Shown here: in pieces, positions 34,980 through 46,379 of the stretch
How positions within the stretch are numbered: position 1 is the stretch's first letter
Layout of the letters: each line of letters starts with the position of its first letter
Source: Clonostachys chloroleuca
Lineage: Eukaryota; Ascomycota; Sordariomycetes; Hypocreales; Bionectriaceae
Assembly (NCBI GenBank): GCA_037952775.1
Contig: JBANAY010000003.1
Span: 24,800,001 to 24,864,000, forward strand
Reading direction: 5' to 3'
DNA length: 64,000 bases
The notes under the pieces: generated by a model
The model's input: only the letters and a program-made list of their open reading frames with translations
The model's database searches: none
Told to the model about the DNA's origin: nothing
Translations under genes and position numbers: made by a program

Positions 34980-36371
34980 ATGGTCCTAAGCGTGCGAAAA
35001 GCCCTCAGGGCCATCCCGCTGTCTCCTGTCCCAGCCGCGGCGACGCAACAGCAACGACACTATCTCATCCCCAGATCCTACAAAGACGCTACTGTCCGCA
35101 GCTCACCCCAGCTAAAGAGCGGGATCCCCACTTCAGACAGCAGAAGACGCGGGGATGTTAGTCTGGGCCAAGCACGGGGATTCGCTACCAACCAACCCAA
35201 GGACCCAAAGAACCTCCCTCTCGATGGCATCACCGTCGTCAGCCTAGAGCAAGCCATCGCCGGCCCCTTCTGCACTCGCCAGCTGGCCGATCTTGGCGCT
35301 CGTGTCATCAAGGTAGAGCGGCCCGGCGATGGCGATTTCGCGCGCAAATATGATAATCGCGTCGCGGGGATGGCGTCCCATTTCATCTGGACGAACCGGT
35401 CCAAGGAGAGTCTAGCTCTTGATCTCAAGAAGCCAAAGTCGCTCGAAGTGCTCAAGAGGCTTCTCGCCAAGGCCGATGTCCTCGTGCAGAACCTCGTACC
35501 GGGCGCTACAGAAAGACTAGGCTTGTCCTTCGACAAGCTACGTAAGAAGAACCCGGGGCTCGTCGTGTGCAACATCTCGGGATACGGGCCAGACGGCCCT
35601 TATAGCGATAAGAAGGCCTACGATCTGCTAGTCCAGAGCGAAGCCGGTTTGCTCTCGGTGACAGGGAGTGAGTCAGAGCCCGCAAAGGTAGGGATCTCGA
35701 TCGCAGATATTGCATCGGCCATGTACGCGCACCAGAATATTCTTGCCGCTCTGCTCCGGCGTGGCAAGACGGGTGAGGGTGCTTCGATCGATGTCTCGAT
35801 GCTAGAGAGCATGGCTGAGTGGATGTCGTTCCCGATGTACTACTCGTACGGCGGCGCAGATGGTCCCAGCCGGACTGGAGCATCTCACGCGACAGTATAT
35901 CCCTATGGACCCTTTCCAACTGGAAGCGGGGACTGCATCATCCTTGGTGTTCAGAACGAGCGCGAGTGGAAGCTGTTCTGCGAGCACGTTATCGGAGACG
36001 CTGAACTGAGCTACGACAGACGATTCACGAGCAACTCGCTTCGTGTAGAGAATCGTGATGCGCTCAGAGATATCATTTGCTCCATTTTTCTCAAGTACCG
36101 AGTGGAGGAAGTCCTCGCTCTTCTCGACAAAGCGCGAATTGCGAATGCCAGGATGAACAAGGCAGAAGAGCTCTGGGACCACCCGCAGTTGAAGGCGAGG
36201 GGGAGATGGACCGAAGTTGAGACTCCAATTGGTCCAGTTCCCGCATTGCTGCCACCGGGCGTAGCGAGCGAGGAAGAAGTCAAGATGGAGGCTGTGCCGG
36301 CAGTTGGTGACCATAATGCCAGTATTCTGGCTGAACTCGGACTTACGGAAGCAGACCTGCTGGAAGACTAG
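34980..36371 (+). CDS. class III CoA-transferase (CaiB/BaiF family), probably mitochondrial
   Basis: A single exon of 463 codons. The family moves CoA between carboxylic acids through an aspartyl-CoA thioester. The family core begins at LDGITVVSLEQAIAGPFCTR (about residue 81) and continues with QLADLGARVIKVERPGDGDF, then ALDLKKP and ISGYGPDGPY. D215 in KAYDLLVQSEAG is the expected catalytic aspartate. About 70 residues precede the core, rich in Arg, Ser and Ala with few acidic residues, which looks like a mitochondrial presequence. The closest recognised types are the succinate-hydroxymethylglutarate and itaconate CoA-transferases; the substrate cannot be settled. With an acetoacetyl-CoA synthetase next door, a role in ketone-body, leucine or dicarboxylate-CoA metabolism is a reasonable inference. 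Confidence 0.88.
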   Translation: MVLSVRKALRAIPLSPVPAAATQQQRHYLIPRSYKDATVRSSPQLKSGIPTSDSRRRGDVSLGQARGFATNQPKDPKNLPLDGITVVSLEQAIAGPFCTRQLADLGARVIKVERPGDGDFARKYDNRVAGMASHFIWTNRSKESLALDLKKPKSLEVLKRLLAKADVLVQNLVPGATERLGLSFDKLRKKNPGLVVCNISGYGPDGPYSDKKAYDLLVQSEAGLLSVTGSESEPAKVGISIADIASAMYAHQNILAALLRRGKTGEGASIDVSMLESMAEWMSFPMYYSYGGADGPSRTGASHATVYPYGPFPTGSGDCIILGVQNEREWKLFCEHVIGDAELSYDRRFTSNSLRVENRDALRDIICSIFLKYRVEEVLALLDKARIANARMNKAEELWDHPQLKARGRWTEVETPIGPVPALLPPGVASEEEVKMEAVPAVGDHNASILAELGLTEADLLED

Positions 36372-36560: not shown

Positions 36561-38229
36561 TTAAACCTTCTCCTCCACATACTTCTGAGAGAGTCCACCT
36601 TGCTTTGACGCGGGAGAAGTCTCATGCTTAGCCCACTTACGGGGAGGAACCCTCAACTCGTAGAGCTCATCGATCTCAACCAGAGTACGGCCGGCTGTCT
36701 CAGGGAGGTAGATGTAGTAGAATACAAGGATAATGGCCACCAGACCTCCAAATACCAGATACGTCTTGGCTCCCAGATTAGCAGCATCGGCAGACGTGAG
36801 CTGGGGCACGACCAGCGTGGTGAGAACCGCTGTAACGTAGGAGCAGCCAATGGTGTAAGCAGACGTCAAGTTACGGAGACGCGGGGTGGGAATCTCGGCT
36901 GGGAGGGCGAGAGACAGAGGGTAGAATGACGCAGCCCAGAAGGTGTTCAAGATGAAGGACAGGGCAGCAATGGCAGTGACGTTGGCTTTCTTGTCGGTGA
37001 AGAAGGCGAGAGCTCCGCATGTGAAGTCGATGACCATGAGAACGCTCATTCCGATCAGAGCAGTAGGTCGACGACCAATTTTATCCACAGTCCAAGGGGC
37101 GATGATAGTTCCGGCAAGAGTGCAGCAAGAAGAGGCAATAGTCAACTGGAAAGCATTTCCAACGCCCAGTTGTGTAAGGAAGACAGTGGCGTATGTAGTG
37201 GACAAGATAATACCGGTGACCTGGTTCACTGAGAACATGGAACCAGCAACAAGGGTACGTTGGATATTGTTCTTATCAAACAGATCCCAGAAAGTGGCGC
37301 CTTTCGACAGTTCCTGGCCGCGCTCGTGGGTCAATCTCATGATCCGAAGTTCATCGGCGATGAGCTGTGTTCCGTATCGGCGCAGCTTGCTGAGGTTAAC
37401 AAGAGCGTCCTCATCCCGGCCTTTGGTAACAAGCCAGAGCGGGCTCTCAGGTATGAGAGCCGTAAGAGGGATAAGAATAGTAGGCATGGCTGCTTGCGCT
37501 CCAATGGGTATCTGATACGAGGCGTATCCAGTCATGGAGTGTGTCGCGTTGGCAATGACAGTGCCAATGACGCCGGCAATCAGGTTGAAGATGTTGGCGG
37601 AGGTCACAGCCCGTCCACGATACTTGGCAGGTACCAGTTCAGACAGGTACAAAGGGGTGATTGTCATAGCAATGGCCATAAGGATGGAGTTGATGAATCT
37701 ACCGACGACAAAAGCAGCGAGTTTAGGTGCGAACGTCTGCATAAACGTGCTACCATACGACAGGGCATAACAACCCACGATAGGCCATTTGCGACCGAAC
37801 TTGGTTGTCAGCGGGGATGCAATTATGGCGCCAACAATGGCGCCAACAAGGGGCACTGCAAAAACCAGAGTTTGATTTTTGGAGGTTAGGATAGGTGTTT
37901 CAACGCTGGGATCAAGTCCTTGGAATCGCTCCACCTATTGATTGGTTAGAGATGTATACATTGACAAGATATGAGATCCGGGTCTTGCAACATACAAAAG
38001 GCGTCATGGCGGCGACTGGGGACACGATTTTATCATCGTAGCCAAACAGCACAGATGACGCGCCCACAGTGAAGCAAGACAGGATAAGGAAAAAGTTCCA
38101 TGGGCTCTCATTGTCAAAATCTGCGCCAGATGCCACAGGATCATGGGTATGGTCAACCTCGATGGCAGTGGCGGAGCCCTCGACCTTTTGGATCGGCTCC
38201 AACTGGGCCTTGGGTTCTTGGGAACTCAT
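36561..38229 (-). CDS. MFS sugar transporter (hexose/disaccharide type)
   Basis: Two exons on the minus strand, 38229-37996 and 37934-36561; 535 residues with twelve expected membrane segments. A 40-residue acidic cytosolic start leads into TM1 (ILSCFTVGASSVLFGYDDKI). Sugar-transporter signatures are all present: TTKFGRKWPIVGCY in the TM2-TM3 loop, PLYLSELVPAKYRGR, PESPLWLVTKGRDEDAL, VNQVTGIILSTTYA, DKIGRRP and PETAGRTLVEIDELYE. It is divergent from the GH32 gene across a 600-base promoter that contains four CGG-N9-CGG sites, so sucrose or fructo-oligosaccharide is the likely cargo (inference). A TATA box lies 92 bases before the ATG. Residue-level substrate prediction within this superfamily is not reliable. 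Confidence 0.88.
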
Positions 38230-38320
38230 GTTGGGGGTATTCGATGGATGATGGCTGTGAATGAAGAAGATGAGTGACTCTGTCGAGATGAAGTCGTGAT
38301 ATGGTCCAGAATCGGGCCGC

Positions 38321-38328
38321 CTTATATA
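38321..38328 (-). promoter_or_regulatory. TATA box of the sugar transporter gene
   Basis: TATATAAG on the minus strand, about 92 bases before the ATG at 38229. Confidence 0.6.
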
Positions 38329-38522
38329 GTTTGTGCCATGGGGATGGAAGACGTGAATTGCGGAGTCTGGAGAACAGCTCACATCATGCAGAATGAAGAA
38401 ATGAGAAGTCTTCCCCAGACTCTGCAAACCGTGGAGCCGATGACATTCCCCCTCAAGTCCTTTCTCTAGCGTGGAACAAAATCGTTCGAGACGAGCCGAT
38501 GCAGCCAAATGCCGAGTCTTTC

Positions 38523-38633
38523 CCGAAATATTCACCGACTTGTTCACCGAGAGGCATGCCGAACCAATGGATTGCCTTGAGAATAGATCCACTACCGAAA
38601 AGTATTCCGAATTAGACCCCGAAATCGTCACCG
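38523..38633. promoter_or_regulatory. four CGG-N9-CGG sites in the sugar transporter/GH32 promoter
   Basis: On the plus strand CCG, nine bases, CCG occurs at 38523-38537, 38547-38561, 38595-38609 and 38619-38633, all in the same orientation (CGG-N9-CGG on the minus strand). Start-to-start distances are 24, 48 and 24. Sites 1 and 4 also share their spacer ends (AAAT..TCA). Zn2Cys6 dimers bind paired CGG triplets with fixed spacing, and the yeast MAL activator prefers pairs spaced by nine. A Zn2Cys6 gene lies 2.8 kb away at 41445. Binding by that protein is an inference. Confidence 0.6.
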
Positions 38634-38835
38634 AGATTAATGGGGCTACAGCAATGCCGCTTCCAGCCTCGAGTAGAATCAGCTAACGCAGATCCAGGTT
38701 CGTTCACGTGGTCTTGAAATCTGGGGCAAGCTGTTTCCAAAGTAAATAAGATATCCATTTCTTCCATAGTCTTGAATGAATGCAGAGGTCATCTGTCTGC
38801 TCCAAATCCAATCACCTCACCCTCAACATCACACC

Positions 38836-40779
38836 ATGTTAACAGCAGACTCCAGGGGCGACATCGCCACGGAGAGAGTTCGGGAGTCTCCTACTCCGCA
38901 CTTTTTCAACCATGCCTTGAATGCTTCAGCGTTCGATGGCTATGACAACAAAGCCCGTTCAAAGCCAAAAAATCCATCTCAGACCCGACCAGCTTTTGAC
39001 AGATGGCGGCCCAAAATGCACCTCCTCGCGCCTCATGGGTGGATGAACGACCCTTGCGCGCTCGGCTACAATGAGGCCACAGGATCATATCATGCTGGTT
39101 TCCAATGGAACCCCAAGGGTTATGAATGGGGAAACATGTCTTGGGGTTGTGCTTTGTCGAATGATCTCTTGCACTGGAACGTGCAAAAAACACCTTCCAT
39201 GGAGCCTGATAGGTCTCATGGTGAGGAAGGTGTCTTCACTGGCTCGATGCTGCCCACAAACCCAAATGGAGAGAAAGATGGATCTTTGACAGCATTCTTC
39301 ACATCCGCACGATATCTCCCTCTCCACTACACCTTGCCTTATACTCTTGGAGCTGAGTCTATCCACATGGCCACCTCGACGGATGGTGGGAGGAGCTGGA
39401 CTAGGTGTGAGCACAACCCCATTGTCAGTCTCCCACCAAAAGAACACAGCGTTCTGGGTTGGAGAGATCCATTCATCACACGCTGGAAAGAGGCCGATGT
39501 AATCCTTGGAAAGACGTCACCATCATTATACGGCTTAGTGGCGGGGAGCATCCGAGGCAAGACACCAACAGTATTTCTCTATGAGATCAATCCGACTCAT
39601 CTTATAGAGTGGTCATACATCTGCACACTCAGCGACCTGGGTATGAACTTTACCCCCTCGGCATGGACTGGTGACTATGGTCAAAATTTCGAAACTGCAA
39701 ATCTCATCTCTTTGGCGGACTCAAAAGGGAAACGACACAATATCATGACGTTGGGTGTAGAAGGGTGTCTAAAGCCAAGACCGAAAGAGAGATCGGAGGT
39801 TATTGATGACCACTCTCAAATGTGGCTATGTGGCCAACTAGAACCATCTTCCAACGGCCTTGAGTTAGGCTTCAAATTTGGCGGTATTGTCGATCACGGG
39901 TGCTATTACGCCATGGCTAGTTTCCCTGATCCTTTCACAGGCGAACAAGTAGCATTTGGCTGGGTGTTGGAAGAAGATCTATCCCCAGACCTTACTGCTC
40001 GCCAAAAATGGAGTGGATGCCTCTCTATACCGCGCGTGCTACGACTAGTTGAGCTTCACTCCGTAACCAAAGCCCTCAAGACGGACGTTGGGCAAATTAC
40101 ATCGATTCAAGCCACACCCACAGAAAACGACACTTTCTCCATTCTCACGTTTTGTGCAGTACCGGATCCCAGACTCCAAAATCTTCGAAGTTCCCAATAT
40201 TCACTGCAGCCTAGATTATTCACATCTAGGGCTCCGGATCAGGTTGAGTTGCTCAACGGATGCGATAGCTGGGAGATGAAGATGTCTTTTAAGGTCGGAA
40301 GCGCCACTAGATGCGGCTTCGAGATAGACTTTTCGCAAGGTGAGTTGATTTACGCGATCACCATAGTTCTAGCTGTATGGGTTGTGCTAACCTAAGATTT
40401 TATACTAGACTACCGGGAAACCGCTCGTGTTTACTTCGAGCCCGGCAACGAGATGCTCTATGTTGACCGGTCGGCCTCCACAAGCTACCCCGGAATCAAT
40501 CGTCTGCCTGAGCGAGCACCCCATACCTTATTTACTGTCCTGGACTCCTCCAATAAGACGGAAGAGCTAGAGACGCTTGACTTTCACGTATATTATGATT
40601 GCAGTGTCCTTGAAATATTTGTCAATGGCAGGACGGCCATCACAACTAGAGTCTACCCTGCATCAAACACCTCATTTGGGGTGCGACCTTTCGTAGAGAG
40701 CACAGATGCAAAGGGTGAAAGAAGCGAATTGGTTTCTTTCAACTTATGGGAATTAGACAGTGCCGGGTGCATTTCCTAA
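38836..40779 (+). CDS. GH32 beta-fructosidase (invertase/inulinase family), no signal peptide
   Basis: Exons 38836-40339 and 40409-40779; 624 residues. An in-frame ATG at 38776 would add 20 residues; 38836 was preferred for its CACACCATG context. It hydrolyses terminal fructose from sucrose or fructans. Catalytic residues by motif: nucleophile D72 in HGWMNDPCAL, transition-state stabiliser D211 in GWRDPFITRW, and acid/base E286 in NFETANLISL, where Thr stands in place of the usual Cys of the EC motif. EEDLSPDLTARQKWSGCLSI marks the end of the propeller; VYYDCSVLEIFVNGRTAI is the expected C-terminal beta-sandwich strand. No hydrophobic signal is present with either start, so the enzyme is probably intracellular, fitting import of the sugar by the divergent transporter. 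Confidence 0.9.
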
Positions 40780-41444
40780 AATTTAATTGCCCATTTGAAT
40801 TCATTTGATGAGAGGATGATATCTGGTTATGATACTTAAGTCAATTGTTGATGCGGAAGTGTTCACCAGTTGTAGTTTAGATTGCGAGCACCACTGTAGG
40901 TACCGAGTAAATACAGTGGGTGCCTACTAAAACGTAGCTCGTTGATTGGCTAATCACAGGAACCGTAAGCGCTATCCTGATTTGGCAAGAACGCTGACAA
41001 GATTGACATAAAGAATCAGCGCTGAGTTCGACAAAATATCAGAACAATCCACCCAATGATCAATACAAATATCGTAGAATAATCTATTAATTTCTTAGTA
41101 TTGCATTTATTATCATTTTAATAAGAAAACCAGGCCTGCAATATGTAATAAGGGCTCTAGTGTGCCATGGTTTTTTTTAGCGATTTGAGTGGATACACTC
41201 CAAAAACTAGCCCGCGGGTGGTTTAGCCCATTCTCAACCCTCTGGGCCGTCTTTGGCCTGGCTGCAATGTTTTCCTTCACGTCTTCGCTACGTCACGCGC
41301 CAGCCAAACATATTCGCTTGCAAATTCTTACCGGCGTCGCACCAAGGCCTACAAGCCTGGGAATGGTGTAAATAGTCCTCCTGGCGCTGTTATCTGCTGG
41401 AATCATATCTAGTATTGGCACGCACGCAGATACTTCATGGGGCG
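40780..41444. other. intergenic, no gene seen
   Basis: About 660 bases between the GH32 gene and the regulator downstream, both on the plus strand. The part around 41040-41140 is AT-rich. No CGG-N9-CGG pair was noticed here. Confidence 0.5.
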
Positions 41445-43529
41445 ATGGAGTATGATGGTGATGGGGCGGCCCTGGCCCCAGTAGGCAGGCCCAAGAGAGC
41501 CTGTGATCAATGCAGCTATCGCAAGGTTAAGGTGGGATTTGAGCTTGATCAGACTGGCCAGCGAACTGACATGGCTGTGACTTAGTGCGATGGGCTTCAG
41601 CCTTGCTCGCGATGCGCCAAATCCCGACTGGATTGCTCCTCAAGCCGGTCGCGTCCTTTGAAGCCATCGAATGGGAGGTATGTTGACTACTCTGGCCCTG
41701 TCTAGTGTCATGTCTTAGGTGGACTGATTGAAATAACGAGTAAAGGCGTATCCAAGCTTTGCGCAATTCGAATGCACCTCGTACGGATGCTGGCAGTTCC
41801 TTGACAGTCCCAGAGCAACGTTATGCTTTGGAGTCGCCGGACTCAGATCGGCCGGTAGTCAACGACTATGCAGCATCAAACTCCAGTCATAGCCCTGTTA
41901 GCATCAGAGATAACCATGGAAATATTCAGTGGGTGAGCCCTCGGCAAGATCATGCACCTCAACATGGCCGTCCATTTTTAAGTCCTGATATGGCACTGGC
42001 GGACCGCAACCAGCCAGGAGATTGGCGTCGACTGGAGGACATGAGCACCACGCCCCGGGATGCAGAATCCCCCACAGACCCTAGTTCTTACATGACACTC
42101 GACGAAGCAGAAGTCATGTCCTGGGTTGAAGTTTTCTTTGATCGGCTGTATTCCACTGTCCCAGTGGTTGACCGTGCTGAGCTGGGCCGTGACCTTATGG
42201 CCCAGAGACACCAACATGATCTTCAGTTTCGAGCAATGATCTACTCTCTTTGTGCTTTCGCAATGATGCAGCCAGTGCATGAGAATGAGCTGGGCTTCAT
42301 ATCATCGCGAGAATCCAGGGCCAAACAGCTGCTTCATTCGGCTGCTCGCGCGAGGGCTTCATATGACTTTGCCGAGAATCCCAATCTCGTCATCATCATC
42401 ACAAGCTTCTTCATGTTTGCCACCCTGTTCAACCTGCGCATGCAGAATTCATCTTGGATACAGCTTAGAGAAGCAGTCGAATGCGGTCGATTAATCGGTC
42501 TGCATCGTCCAGAGTCGTATGAAGGCTTAACACCCCGCCAAATCAGTCACAGACTTCGAGTCTACCTTGTGCTTTCCGTTACAGAGAGGTAGTGAACCCC
42601 AGATTAAATATCAGTTTTTTGGTAAAGGAAAATTGACCATCGAGGCTAATATTAATATTGTGCACAATAGATCAGTGGCACTGCAGCGGAATCATTACAT
42701 TAGCTTTACAGGCCAGCCACTTCAGGATCTGCATAATTACCACGTTTCGCTGCGCGCTGCAAGTGTCAAAGAGCTTTCCGGCGTTGTCATTTTTGACTCA
42801 CGAATGGCTTCTGCCACGGTAGGATTGCTGCGACTCAGCAAGCTATGCAGCGCCGTTGATGAACGTGTCATCTCATGCTGGAACTCCAGCTGCTCTTCCG
42901 GCCGACAGGCATGCACAAAAGTCACGATCGAACAGGCGGTCCAGGTTTTCAACAGCATCGAGAGTGCAGCTGGGCCTAGCGAAGACCCCAACGATCCGGA
43001 AAACATTCTTTCAGCCCGCATATTAGAGGATCGCGCTGCACACGAGGGCGTTGAGATATTGACCCAGGGGCAGGTCATTGACATCAGTATATTACGGTTC
43101 TGGCTCACTACAAGATTATGGGTGTCCTGCCTCACACACGATCTGCTGGATGAAACTTCCCCGCACGAAAACTTGAGACCGTCTTATATGGTTCACATCG
43201 CGAGACAGGCCCTGGACATTGCCAACATTTGTGGTGAAGATCGGCTGGCAACCCATGGCATCGGCATCGTGAGTTGCGCCCTCGCCGAGTAATCCCGACC
43301 GTAATTTTTCTCTAGCTAACACAACACTCTATAGATCGAAAGAATATATGATATTGGCATGGGGGTAATCATGGCATTACAGCACTGCGTTGCTGACCCG
43401 GCGTCTGCACCGCTCATCCCAGACTTTGAGCAATTGCTCCAAAGGTTTTTCCATTTCCTTCGCGCAACGAGGGGTGGAAACCATCCATTCTATCAGGCGC
43501 TCAAGAAGGCATTTGATTCCGTGCAATGA
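41445..43529 (+). CDS. Zn2Cys6 transcription factor, candidate regulator of the sugar cluster
   Basis: Five exons: 41445-41531, 41586-41677, 41746-42588, 42671-43268, 43335-43529; 604 residues, no frame break. The zinc cluster is split by intron 1: RACDQCSYRKVK joins CDGLQPCSRCAKSRLDC, giving C-x2-C-x6-C-x5-C-x2-C-x6-C. This finger, with CDG after the third cysteine, resembles fungal maltose/sucrose activators (MAL, SUC1, AmyR group). A Ser/Pro-rich linker follows, then the fungal-specific domain (MSWVEVFFDRLYSTVPVVD, FRAMIYSLCAFAMM, ECGRLIGLHRPESYEGLTP, and VTER joined to SVALQRNHYISF across intron 3). It follows the GH32 and transporter genes, whose shared promoter has spaced CGG pairs, so it is the obvious local regulator (inference). 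Its 3' end lies 97 bases from the next regulator's 3' end. Confidence 0.87.
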
Positions 43530-43626: not shown

Positions 43627-45925
43627 TCACGACCCCAGAAGATTCGGGTGCTCCGCCAGGTTCGCCCAGAAGTCATTCTCGCACTCCCAGGGATCCCAAT
43701 AATACGTGAATGCGGTGGTGGGATCATTAGATACCGGTACAGGCTGTTGTTGCTGCAATGGGAGCAATGGACTGGACAACACCGCGTCAAGTATGCTTTG
43801 AATTGTCCTCGTGGCCCGGGCGAACAGTGCGTAATTAGGTTCGCTGGGTTGGATGAAGGTGTTTCCCTTGAACTCCCCCACGAAAATGCTGAGATTCTGG
43901 ATGAGGTTGGAGCGGGAGCTGGACTTGGAGTTGAAGATCGTGGCTGGGTTGAGAAGGGATAGCGACACGGCAGCGGCGGCTGGGAGGCCATACTGGGAAA
44001 TCTAATACCAAGTAAGTCATGTAAATGTTAATGCAAATAAGATGAAAGGACATACATACCTTCCAGATTAGAGATGTCCCGGAGTTGACCAATGTGTGCC
44101 GTAGTATGATGAGTTCAACCGAATACGACAACATTTCGCCCGCGACTGCGAGAAGGGCCTCACTAGGGCCTGTCGAATTCTTGAGAGAGATCAGATCTAG
44201 AAGGAGAAGATTGTGCAAGTATTCGAGACGGGTTCCGACAAGAAAATCACGTTCAAACGAATTGGAAGGGCTGTCTCGGAGGCTGGTCGACAATTTAAAG
44301 CGAGCCGGGAAACCTTGCCAAATATTTTCGACCGCTTGTTGCAGAGAACTGTATGGAAATAACCCAAAAATTAGAATATGACGCCATAATTAGACGCTGG
44401 GGATCTCTTACCTTATTTTGGCTACTTGGTCATGAGAATGTCGAGTTCGGAATAGTTCTATGATCTCCTCTTTGATGGCGGAGAACAAGGCACTGCATCG
44501 AGTATCCGCGGTGTAGTTGATCTTCTCAAGTGAATCGAAAGTTGTGAACTCAGAAGGAGGAACATCTGTACTCATGTATCGCAAATGTGACTCTTGCGCG
44601 TCTTCATTCCAAAGATCCGGGATGTTTCGAGGCAACTGCAAAGTGCAATGTGCTTTCACAATACGCGGAGGGCGGCCCAAGAATACGGAAATCTTCTTAT
44701 CCGCCGAATATGTTCGAGCTGAAATGGCTCTCCGTAGTTCAGCCACGAATAGAGGAATCCGAGCTGAATTTTCATCGATGACCTCGTGGAATCCTAGGGC
44801 GAAGAACGTGCTTGCGGCATCACCTATTTTGCGCCAGAATTGATAACCTAATCGTTTCGAAAATTAGTGTTCGTATGGCTTTTGAGTGTGTATTAATTGA
44901 TATGCTTAGAGGACCGGCGTACTTTGGTCTCCGTCTACCTGTGAGTGAACAATCAGGTTCTCGTATTGGAGAACTGCCTGCAGATCGTTGAGGCAATCAA
45001 GAGACAGACAAATCTCGAGACAGCAGTCGCTAATATAGGTCACAGCCTTAACCAGATGTCGCTTCTCCCCGAAATTGGAATACAGTCCCGGCCATGAGTC
45101 CGTGTCCAGGGCGGCACGCGAGGCCGCGGTAAAGAAAATGCCGAGGGCCTCCCAGCGCAGGCTGTCGTCGAAGATCTGCGCCATGTATTCACTCACGGTG
45201 GTATCTCTCTCCAGTCGAATCTGCCTTCTGCTGTTTCTGAGCAGGAAGCGTGCTTTCCTGGTTATCCATTGGTCGGATATCTGAGCACTGCCACCGCACT
45301 CATGACCTCGGAGCTCCCAAAACGCCCGCGCAGCTTCAATGCTCCCCGGTACGAAAGGTTCGGCCAGAGGAAGATTCACATTTCGCCCGACCCAGTCATT
45401 GACTAGTCCGCATATACTTGGGACGTCCATTTGAACCAATTGGCTCAATGCTTGGATGGCTTTGTGGGCGACATCTTGATCCTTGAACACATCGTCTGTC
45501 CCCAAAGGAGTCTCCACATCTAAAGGGAGGATGCTAGGATCACCAACAGGAGACGTTTCGGTTGTATTCACTTGGCTGAAGATTGCCGAATGGCTAGAAT
45601 GCCCGAGATAACCAGGATTCGGATAATGATGAGGCCTCGGCGACGTGAGGAGTTGCTCAGGGGGTGATATCGGGCTCTGCGGCGAAGCTCTGCCCACGCT
45701 AATGACCCAAATTAGTGAACTATGTCAAATTTACTGCAAGGGGCTTTGTGAATCGTACCCAGGAGTCGTCCCATTTCTTCGCTCTCTTCGCTTGAATGGC
45801 CGGTCTCTGTATGTACAACTCCTACCTTGCCCACGGAAACTACACCTAGAGCAAACAGGGCGCTCGTGATTGCAGGCGAGCTTAGAAAGCCGGCAAGGCT
45901 CGCAAGCAGCAAGCCTCACGGACAT
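43627..45925 (-). CDS. Zn2Cys6 transcription factor
   Basis: Five exons on the minus strand: 45925-45759, 45698-44923, 44847-44412, 44348-44060, 44001-43627; 680 residues, all junctions in frame. The zinc cluster lies at the very N-terminus in exon 1 (LAACEPCRLSKLACNHERPV, then CSRCSFRGQGRSC), which gives spacing C-x2-C-x6-C and a slightly long last loop. A basic stretch RPFKRRERRNG follows. The middle region matches the fungal-specific regulator domain (ARAFWELRGHECGG, SLRWEALGIFFTAASRAAL, SDCCLEICLSLDCLND). It is divergent from the monocarboxylate-type transporter across 450 bases, so it may control that transporter (inference). Its target and ligand are unknown. Confidence 0.85.
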
Positions 45926-46379
45926 TGTTGTTTTGGGGCACTTGGCATACGGCGTGTTCTGTATTGAAGGAATGTGTAATGGTAGGAATGAAGCTTGCAA
46001 AAAGCAAGATTGTCGGAGAATTAGGACAACTGTGGGTTCCATCTCGGCGAAATCGGCGTATTACCTTTTTGCTCATGACTAGCGCCCCCTCGCCCTTTCT
46101 ATTAGTAACGAGACAGCCTGGGACTAATTTTTCACAATCGTTAATGTCGGTACTCCGAAGACGCCTAGATATGGAGATGGTGAGAATTAAGTAGTGTAGC
46201 ATGGTAAGACCATAGCGGATACGTAGTAATGTGACTGGTTGCGGGGGTATATGAAGGCAAGTCGCTCTCGTGTATTTGATCCTGCTGGCCTGCACCTATT
46301 TATGTCACCGACTTGTGCCAGTTTGCTCGCTTTCTCTCTCGATTCCAGCTTTCATGTCACATACTTTTAATCATACGCC
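45926..46379. other. divergent promoter region, no gene seen
   Basis: About 450 bases between a Zn2Cys6 gene (minus) and a transporter (plus). The last 60 bases are pyrimidine-rich on the plus strand. No clear TATA box or paired CGG site was found by eye. Confidence 0.5.

What the first reader, a model, noticed from the sequence alone, without database searches (positions are those of the whole stretch)
38523..38633. Four CGG-N9-CGG pairs in a 24-bp register in a bidirectional sugar-gene promoter
CCG-N9-CCG occurs four times, all in one orientation, at 38523, 38547, 38595 and 38619. The distances are 24, 48 and 24, so one 24-bp slot is skipped. Random expectation for this pattern on either strand in 600 bases is well below one. 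The array sits between a sugar transporter and a GH32 gene, and a Zn2Cys6 gene with a MAL/SUC1-like finger follows. Yeast MAL activators are known to use pairs spaced by nine. The regular register suggests cooperative binding of several dimers, a design I do not know as described for fungal fructoside genes.
Basis: partly seen in the sequence, partly recalled or inferred. Interest (0 to 1): 0.75.

Follow-up and report, generated by a model that had tools for sequence, protein, structure and literature searches.

The report
MAL-type activator array, twelve-base register
Between a sugar-importer gene and a fructose-releasing enzyme gene of a Clonostachys fungus lie eight evenly spaced TCGG tags, probably docking points for a sugar-switched activator, and similar arrays lie in front of two maltase-type genes in the same genome.

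Summary
The array is real, but its register was misread. It holds eight TCGG half-sites on the minus strand, one every 12 bp: four (38523-38562), two empty slots, four (38595-38634). That makes six CGG-N9-CGG pairs, not four; the 24-bp register comes from counting non-overlapping pairs. None of 5,000 dinucleotide shuffles passed three pairs or four in register. Spacers are about as unlike as composition predicts, so this is not a recent minisatellite.

The window is Clonostachys. Similar 12-bp arrays (4+3 and 2+4 half-sites) occur at two other transporter/glycosidase promoters of this genome, both with GH13 alpha-glucosidases and a Zn2Cys6 gene nearby. A weaker one (3+2) lies before a Git3-type receptor gene. 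Several other fungi seem to keep this GH32 gene and regulator together.

Best reading: a MAL-type upstream activating array for direct-repeat Zn2Cys6 dimers, serving both genes. The nine-base spacing matches yeast MalR sites (PMC4172970), not the N8 of AmyR/InuR. Which regulator binds is open. Promoter DNA of other fungi was not available, so conservation is untested. New variant of a known kind.

The parts
38523..38562 (-). Block 1: four TCGG half-sites, 12-bp step (CCGA on + at 38523, 38535, 38547, 38559)
38571..38594 (.). Two empty 12-bp slots between the blocks
38595..38634 (-). Block 2: four TCGG half-sites, 12-bp step (CCGA on + at 38595, 38607, 38619, 38631)
38512..38515 (-). Extra TCGG out of register (CGG-N8-CGG with 38523); may be chance
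38323..38328 (-). TATATA about 95 bp upstream of the transporter ATG
36561..38229 (-). Sugar transporter gene; ATG at 38227-38229; intron near 37935-37992 read by eye
   Evidence: Sugar_tr E 1.9e-72 on ORF 36561-37934; start read
38776..40779 (+). GH32 gene, no signal peptide seen by eye; ATG at 38776 or 38836; intron 40340-40408 read by eye
   Evidence: Glyco_hydro_32N E 4.7e-37; 95% identical to Clonostachys rosea P0001
41445..43529 (+). Zn2Cys6 regulator gene, five exons, 604 aa; candidate binder of the array
   Evidence: splice model; Zn_clus 44.3 bits; homologs

Best explanation
The array is a MAL-type upstream activating region inside a bidirectional promoter. Each TCGG is a half-site for one Zn2Cys6 DNA-binding domain. 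Domains bind head to tail, two per dimer, 12 bp apart (CGG-N9-CGG). Each block of four can hold two dimers side by side, or offers three overlapping pairings; the two blocks hold up to four dimers. When the inducing fructoside is imported, the activators switch on transporter and hydrolase together, and many sites make the response strong and switch-like. Shown: the array, its non-randomness, spacing and position, and its recurrence at two other transporter/glycosidase pairs. Inferred: binding, dimer geometry, induction and cooperativity. The gene at 41445-43529 is the first candidate binder; a regulator shared with other arrays is nearly as likely.
For: Eight TCGG in one 12-bp register, beyond 5,000 of 5,000 shuffles, with spacers near random likeness (0.31 against 0.28), so the tags alone are kept. 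Same-strand N9 pairs number 6, 5 and 4 at three of 10 GH32/GH13 upstream regions and 0-1 at the other seven. All three are MFS/glycosidase pairs with a Zn2Cys6 gene nearby. GH32 and regulator homologs share a contig length in 9 of 20 regulator hits. Yeast MalR sites are CGG(9N)CGG or CGC(9N)CGN, with three sites at maltose promoters and a bidirectional MAL11/MAL12 promoter (PMC4172970).
Against: No binding or expression data. No DNA from other species. In the genome the reversed control pattern matches more often than the array pattern (113 against 54, 69 against 13, 47 against 10, 48 against 14), so the evidence is place and context, not counts. Seven of 10 GH13/GH32 upstream regions lack the array. 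Half-site context groups the window with C1:6.06, while the regulators group window with C1:5.67, against a purely local binder. A 256-codon open frame covers the window's array.
Confidence: 0.75

Rival explanations
1. One shared regulator (an AmyR/COL-26/MalR-like activator encoded elsewhere) binds the arrays at several loci; the Zn2Cys6 gene beside the window's array does something else or only assists. This differs from the best explanation only in who binds.
For: Window and C1:6.06 half-sites look alike (T at -1 in 15 of 15, pyrimidine at -2 in 14 of 15), unlike C1:5.67 (3 of 6 and 2 of 6; post hoc Fisher p 0.015 and 0.011). The local regulators do not follow this: window and C1:5.67 are related (hhalign probability 99.4, E 4.7e-22), C1:6.06 is distant (81.5, E 1.1e-5). 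The array before a Git3-type gene had no Zn2Cys6 gene noticed in the 9.5 kb read (not searched for).
Against: GH32 and this regulator travel together in other fungi, which suggests a dedicated pair. No shared regulator was identified here.
Confidence: 0.38
2. An AmyR/InuR-type regulator with N8 spacing uses these sites.
For: AmyR weakly binds single CGG triplets (PMC4943734, passages). One N8 pair is present (38512/38523). InuR controls sucrose and inulin genes (PMC5468973, passages).
Against: Six N9 pairs against one N8 pair in the window; at C1:6.06 five N9 and no N8; at C1:5.67 four N9 and one N8 on the same strand.
Confidence: 0.08
3. The 12-bp step comes from tandem duplication (a decayed minisatellite), not from selection for binding.
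For: Tandem copies with the same step exist in this genome: C4:15042635 and C1:1537302 (spacer identity 0.83 and 0.92, three spacers each). C1:5.67 spacers are somewhat alike (0.47 against 0.26).
Against: Window spacers 0.31 against 0.28 expected, while TCGG is kept in eight of eight; three transporter/glycosidase loci share the step.
Confidence: 0.05
4. Chance, or a coding constraint in an upstream extension of the transporter.
For: The minus-strand ORF 37912-38631 runs over most of the array, and a stop-to-stop frame of 256 codons spans it; 12 bp is four codons.
Against: Shuffles. TATATA at 38323 lies inside that frame, and the transporter has an ATG at 38229. At C1:6.06 the longest spanning frame is 88 codons.
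Confidence: 0.02

Closest known systems
Yeast MAL loci with MalR (Malx3, Yfl052w) sites (PMC4172970; passages and section 6 seen)
   Same: CG-rich triplets as direct pairs with a nine-base spacer, several sites per promoter, a bidirectional transporter/hydrolase promoter (MAL11/MAL12)
   Different: Three Malx3 sites at maltose promoters and one Yfl052w site at palatinose genes; here half-sites are chained in blocks of four at a 12-bp step, and the hydrolase is GH32
AmyR and InuR sites in Aspergillus (PMC4943734, PMC5468973, PMC10142829, PMC9926565; passages seen)
   Same: Zn2Cys6 activators of storage-sugar genes on direct CGG repeats; InuR acts on sucrose/inulin genes and transporters
   Different: Spacer of eight, not nine; pairs, not chains; InuR's site is putative
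MAL cluster of Aspergillus oryzae and other ascomycetes (PMC5468973, PMC11930586; passages seen)
   Same: Transporter, intracellular GH13 and regulator side by side, as at C1:6.06 and C1:5.67
   Different: MalR's DNA site is listed as unknown in PMC5468973 (2017); the window's hydrolase is GH32

Membership tests
MAL-type UAS (MalR sites) | CGG direct repeat with nine-base spacer | tested here: met
   six pairs; site definition from PMC4172970
MAL-type UAS (MalR sites) | More than one site in a promoter between transporter and disaccharide hydrolase | tested here: met
   substrate of the GH32 not known
MAL-type UAS (MalR sites) | Bound and needed for induction by a MalR-type protein | not testable with these tools
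   needs binding and reporter assays
AmyR/InuR sites | CGG-N8-(C/A)GG spacing | tested here: not met
   one N8 CGG pair against six N9 pairs; the AGG variant was not counted
Zn2Cys6 regulators | Zn_clus domain | tested here: met
   44.3 bits, cut-off 21
MAL/AmyR/InuR regulator family (gene at 41445-43529) | Sequence relation to a named member | tested here: inconclusive
   hits bear no such names; related by hhalign to the regulator beside a GH13/MFS pair; a Lipomyces homolog has RKRGP after the finger, which I recall as MAL-like
Minisatellite / tandem duplication | Repeat units alike along their whole length | tested here: not met
   spacer identity 0.31 against 0.28

The most novel reading that the evidence does not exclude
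Clonostachys marks a scattered sugar regulon (importer/hydrolase pairs for fructosides and glucosides, and perhaps a Git3-type receptor) with chained TCGG-N8 arrays. On these a Zn2Cys6 activator assembles head to tail as a short polymer beyond the dimer, so that the number of half-sites sets the threshold of the switch.
Probability: 0.2. Interest if true: 0.68.

Novelty: new variant of a known kind. Interest (0 to 1): 0.5.

Why it matters
Sugar regulators of filamentous fungi outside Aspergillus are poorly mapped; MalR's site is listed as unknown and InuR's as unconfirmed in the passages seen. A clear cis code (TCGG every 12 bp) recurring at several loci gives a direct way to find the regulator and its targets, and a natural test of how number and phasing of half-sites shape a eukaryotic switch.

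Tried and rejected
24-bp register: rejected; pairs at 38535 and 38607 fill it to 12 bp. Minisatellite: rejected on spacer identity, with true tandem copies as contrast. Coding constraint: judged unlikely. A stricter half-site pair (TTCTCGG-N5-TTCTCGG) gave 4 matches, none at the arrays, so it is no useful extended site. Autoregulation through the same kind of array: no N9 pair in 40780-41444 upstream of the regulator. Paper searches for CGG-N9-CGG/MAL63, InuR, AmyR CGGN8 (40), MalR, MAL63/UAS/CGG, Clonostachys/GH32 (48), chained CGG half-sites, COL-26 motifs and sucrose clusters: no title or abstract shown in these capped listings describes chained N9 half-sites; of the papers listed only the six opened (PMC10142829, PMC4943734, PMC5468973, PMC9926565, PMC4172970, PMC6142294) and PMC11930586 were looked into, by passages (PMC4172970 also one section). 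No structure prediction was run.

Full report
WHAT IS THERE. The minus strand between the transporter ATG (38227-38229) and the GH32 ATG (38776, or 38836 in frame) carries TCGG at eight places: CCGA on the plus strand at 38523, 38535, 38547, 38559, then 38595, 38607, 38619, 38631. The step is 12 bp and two slots (38571, 38583) are empty. Six CGG-N9-CGG pairs lie here, of 23 in the window (14.0 expected; 4 of 100 shuffles reach 23). Plus-strand CGG occurs twice in 38231-38852.

IS IT CHANCE? In 5,000 dinucleotide shuffles of 38231-38835 the number of N9 pairs never passed 3 (observed 6), the number of CGG in one 12-bp register within 111 bp never passed 4 (observed 8), and the best pair count over all steps from 6 to 24 never passed 3.

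IS IT A TANDEM DUPLICATION? Mean pairwise identity of the eight spacer bases is 0.31 in the window against 0.28 expected from composition, 0.39 against 0.30 at C1:6.06 and 0.47 against 0.26 at C1:5.67. Tandem copies with the same step elsewhere in the genome give 0.83 (C4:15042635) and 0.92 (C1:1537302), three spacers each. In the window only the tags are kept. C1:5.67 may have a duplication history or a longer motif.

HOST AND GENES. The GH32 protein is 95% identical over 97% of the query to a Clonostachys rosea protein and the regulator 99% to one of Bionectria ochroleuca; the assembly has 59.4 Mb in four contigs. Pfam: Sugar_tr, Glyco_hydro_32N, and CoA_transf_3 for the next gene. NDP, RDP and E306 (P0001 numbering) are invariant in the 10 GH32 proteins aligned, 10 of 118 hits (their catalytic roles are recalled). 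No signal peptide is seen by eye. The regulator was spliced from five exons with GT..AG introns and has a Zn_clus domain of 44.3 bits.

SISTER ARRAYS: COUNTS. TCGG-N8-TCGG-N8-TCGG has 54 matches in the genome against 113 for the reversed control, so the triple alone is not enriched. Loci were fetched for 30 of the 54; 20 of these 30 are spanned by an open frame of at least 120 codons. That includes the two window loci (256 codons) and L021 (123), so frame length is no clean test, and calling a place non-coding rests partly on judgement. Within 2 kb of 101 transporter, GH13 and GH32 regions (91 transporter regions standing for the 97 rows, plus 6 GH13 and 4 GH32; 0.86% of the genome) lie 8 of the 54 matches, at three places: C1:6.06, the window, and C4:3730748, which by eye reads as transporter coding.

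Two-plus-two TCGG blocks gave 13 matches at 9 places with a gap of 8-38 (control 69) and 14 matches at 9 places with a gap of 39-69 (control 48). Four in a row starting with TCGG gave 10 matches at 9 places (control 47); six of those nine places were not fetched. Of the places, I judge three to be promoter arrays: the window, C1:6.06 and C3:4.94. C4:15042635 is tandem copies, C3:29898184 and C3:16339292 six-base repeats, C3:25053963 and C3:31435191 (frames of 115 and 114 codons) stay unclassified, and the others look coding from frames or by eye.

C1:6.06. CGG at 6059911, 923, 935, 947, then 984, 996, 6060008, all TCGG. It lies between a minus-strand Sugar_tr gene (E 1.7e-52) and a plus-strand GH13 gene (Alpha-amylase, E 3.5e-147), followed by a Fungal_trans gene (E 9.3e-15), whose start reads by eye as a Zn cluster; a GH3 gene lies beyond the transporter.

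C1:5.67. CGG at 5674115, 127, then 179, 191, 203, 215, about 210-310 bp upstream of the ATG (5674429) of another GH13 gene, with MFS-like minus-strand ORFs at 5672302-5673537 and a Zn2Cys6 ORF at 5677412-5678290 (read by eye, no Pfam run). It came up because one search's capped list of 903 triples covers contig 1 and only the start of contig 3; the rest of the genome has not been searched for arrays lacking T at -1.

C3:4.94. CCG at 4944544, 556, 568, then 628, 640: five TCGG, 480 bp upstream of an ATG at 4944064 of a gene with a Git3 domain (39 bits, cut-off 24.2; exons put together by eye). Found by motif first, three of five spacers begin alike (GAAT), and a 123-codon frame spans it, so it is a weaker lead.

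SURVEY. Of 10 GH13/GH32 upstream regions examined, same-strand N9 pairs number 6 (window), 5 (C1:6.06), 4 (C1:5.67), and 0 or 1 in the other seven, though those seven are longer regions (1.3-1.7 kb). The array marks some, not all, such genes. C1:6.06 entered this survey through the motif, so it is not an independent draw; C1:5.67 entered through the gene list and the motif list together.

WHO BINDS? The regulator search gave 20 hits (only 7,994 candidates scored) and the GH32 search 118. In nine of the 20 the longest-contig length equals that of a GH32 hit: Ilyonectria, Dactylonectria, Knufia, Sarocladium, two Exophiala (locus tags 07942/07944 and 010290/010292) and three unnamed. That suggests a kept cluster; same contig is inferred from lengths and tags. 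Against a purely local binder: half-site context groups the window with C1:6.06 (T at -1 in 15 of 15, pyrimidine at -2 in 14 of 15) apart from C1:5.67 (3 of 6, 2 of 6), a post hoc comparison, while the window regulator is nearer to that of C1:5.67 (hhalign 99.4) than of C1:6.06 (81.5). A shared binder is a serious rival.

KNOWN SYSTEMS. Yfl052w binds CGG(9N)CGG and Malx3 CGC(9N)CGN; maltose promoters and MAL11 carry three Malx3 sites, all needed for full activation; MAL11 and MAL12 share a bidirectional promoter (PMC4172970; passages, section 6). AmyR uses CGGN8(C/A)GG and binds single triplets weakly (PMC4943734, passages). InuR's CGGN8CGG is putative, and PMC9926565 calls it not experimentally confirmed (passages). 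Aspergillus MalR has no listed site (PMC5468973, passages). MAL clusters with intracellular GH13 are described in ascomycetes (PMC11930586, passages). The window works like a MAL-type UAS by spacing and setting; unlike it, half-sites are chained in blocks of four.

MECHANISM. At 12 bp per step successive half-sites turn by about 50 degrees (B-DNA of 10.5 bp per turn, recalled), so the array is not a one-face helical phasing; spacing within a dimer, not the helix face, seems to set the step (inference). Blocks sit 143-313 bp upstream of the GH32 ATGs and about 294-405 bp upstream of the transporter ATG (coordinates). CreA-like SYGGRG motifs (consensus seen) occur at 38360, 38367, 38413, 38431 and 38721, but such short motifs are common.

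VERDICT. A real, probably functional activator array with sister arrays that make it testable; a new variant of a known kind. Binding, inducer and conservation remain to be shown.

Noticed in passing
L021 and L070 (C3:4942826-4944643): A 3+2 TCGG array at the 12-bp step lies about 480 bp upstream of a gene with a Git3 (glucose-receptor type) domain: possible sugar-sensing member of the same regulon.
   Followed up: partly
window 34980-36371, +: CoA-transferase family III gene (PF02515) ends about 190 bp from the 3' end of the transporter gene; whether it belongs to the cluster is unknown.
   Followed up: no
window 45731-46042, -: A second Zn2Cys6-like finger ORF (by eye) near the regulator, on the other strand.
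   Followed up: no
L062 (C4:15042635-15042674) and L010 (C1:1537302): True tandem copies of a 12-bp unit with CGG (spacer identity 0.83 and 0.92): a possible raw material from which such arrays arise.
   Followed up: partly
window 38360, 38367, 38413, 38431, 38721: CreA-like SYGGRG motifs in the same promoter, as would suit glucose repression; not tested against chance.
   Followed up: no
L044 (C1:6055082-6057211): A GH3 gene with a PA14 domain lies next to the C1:6.06 transporter/alpha-glucosidase pair.
   Followed up: no
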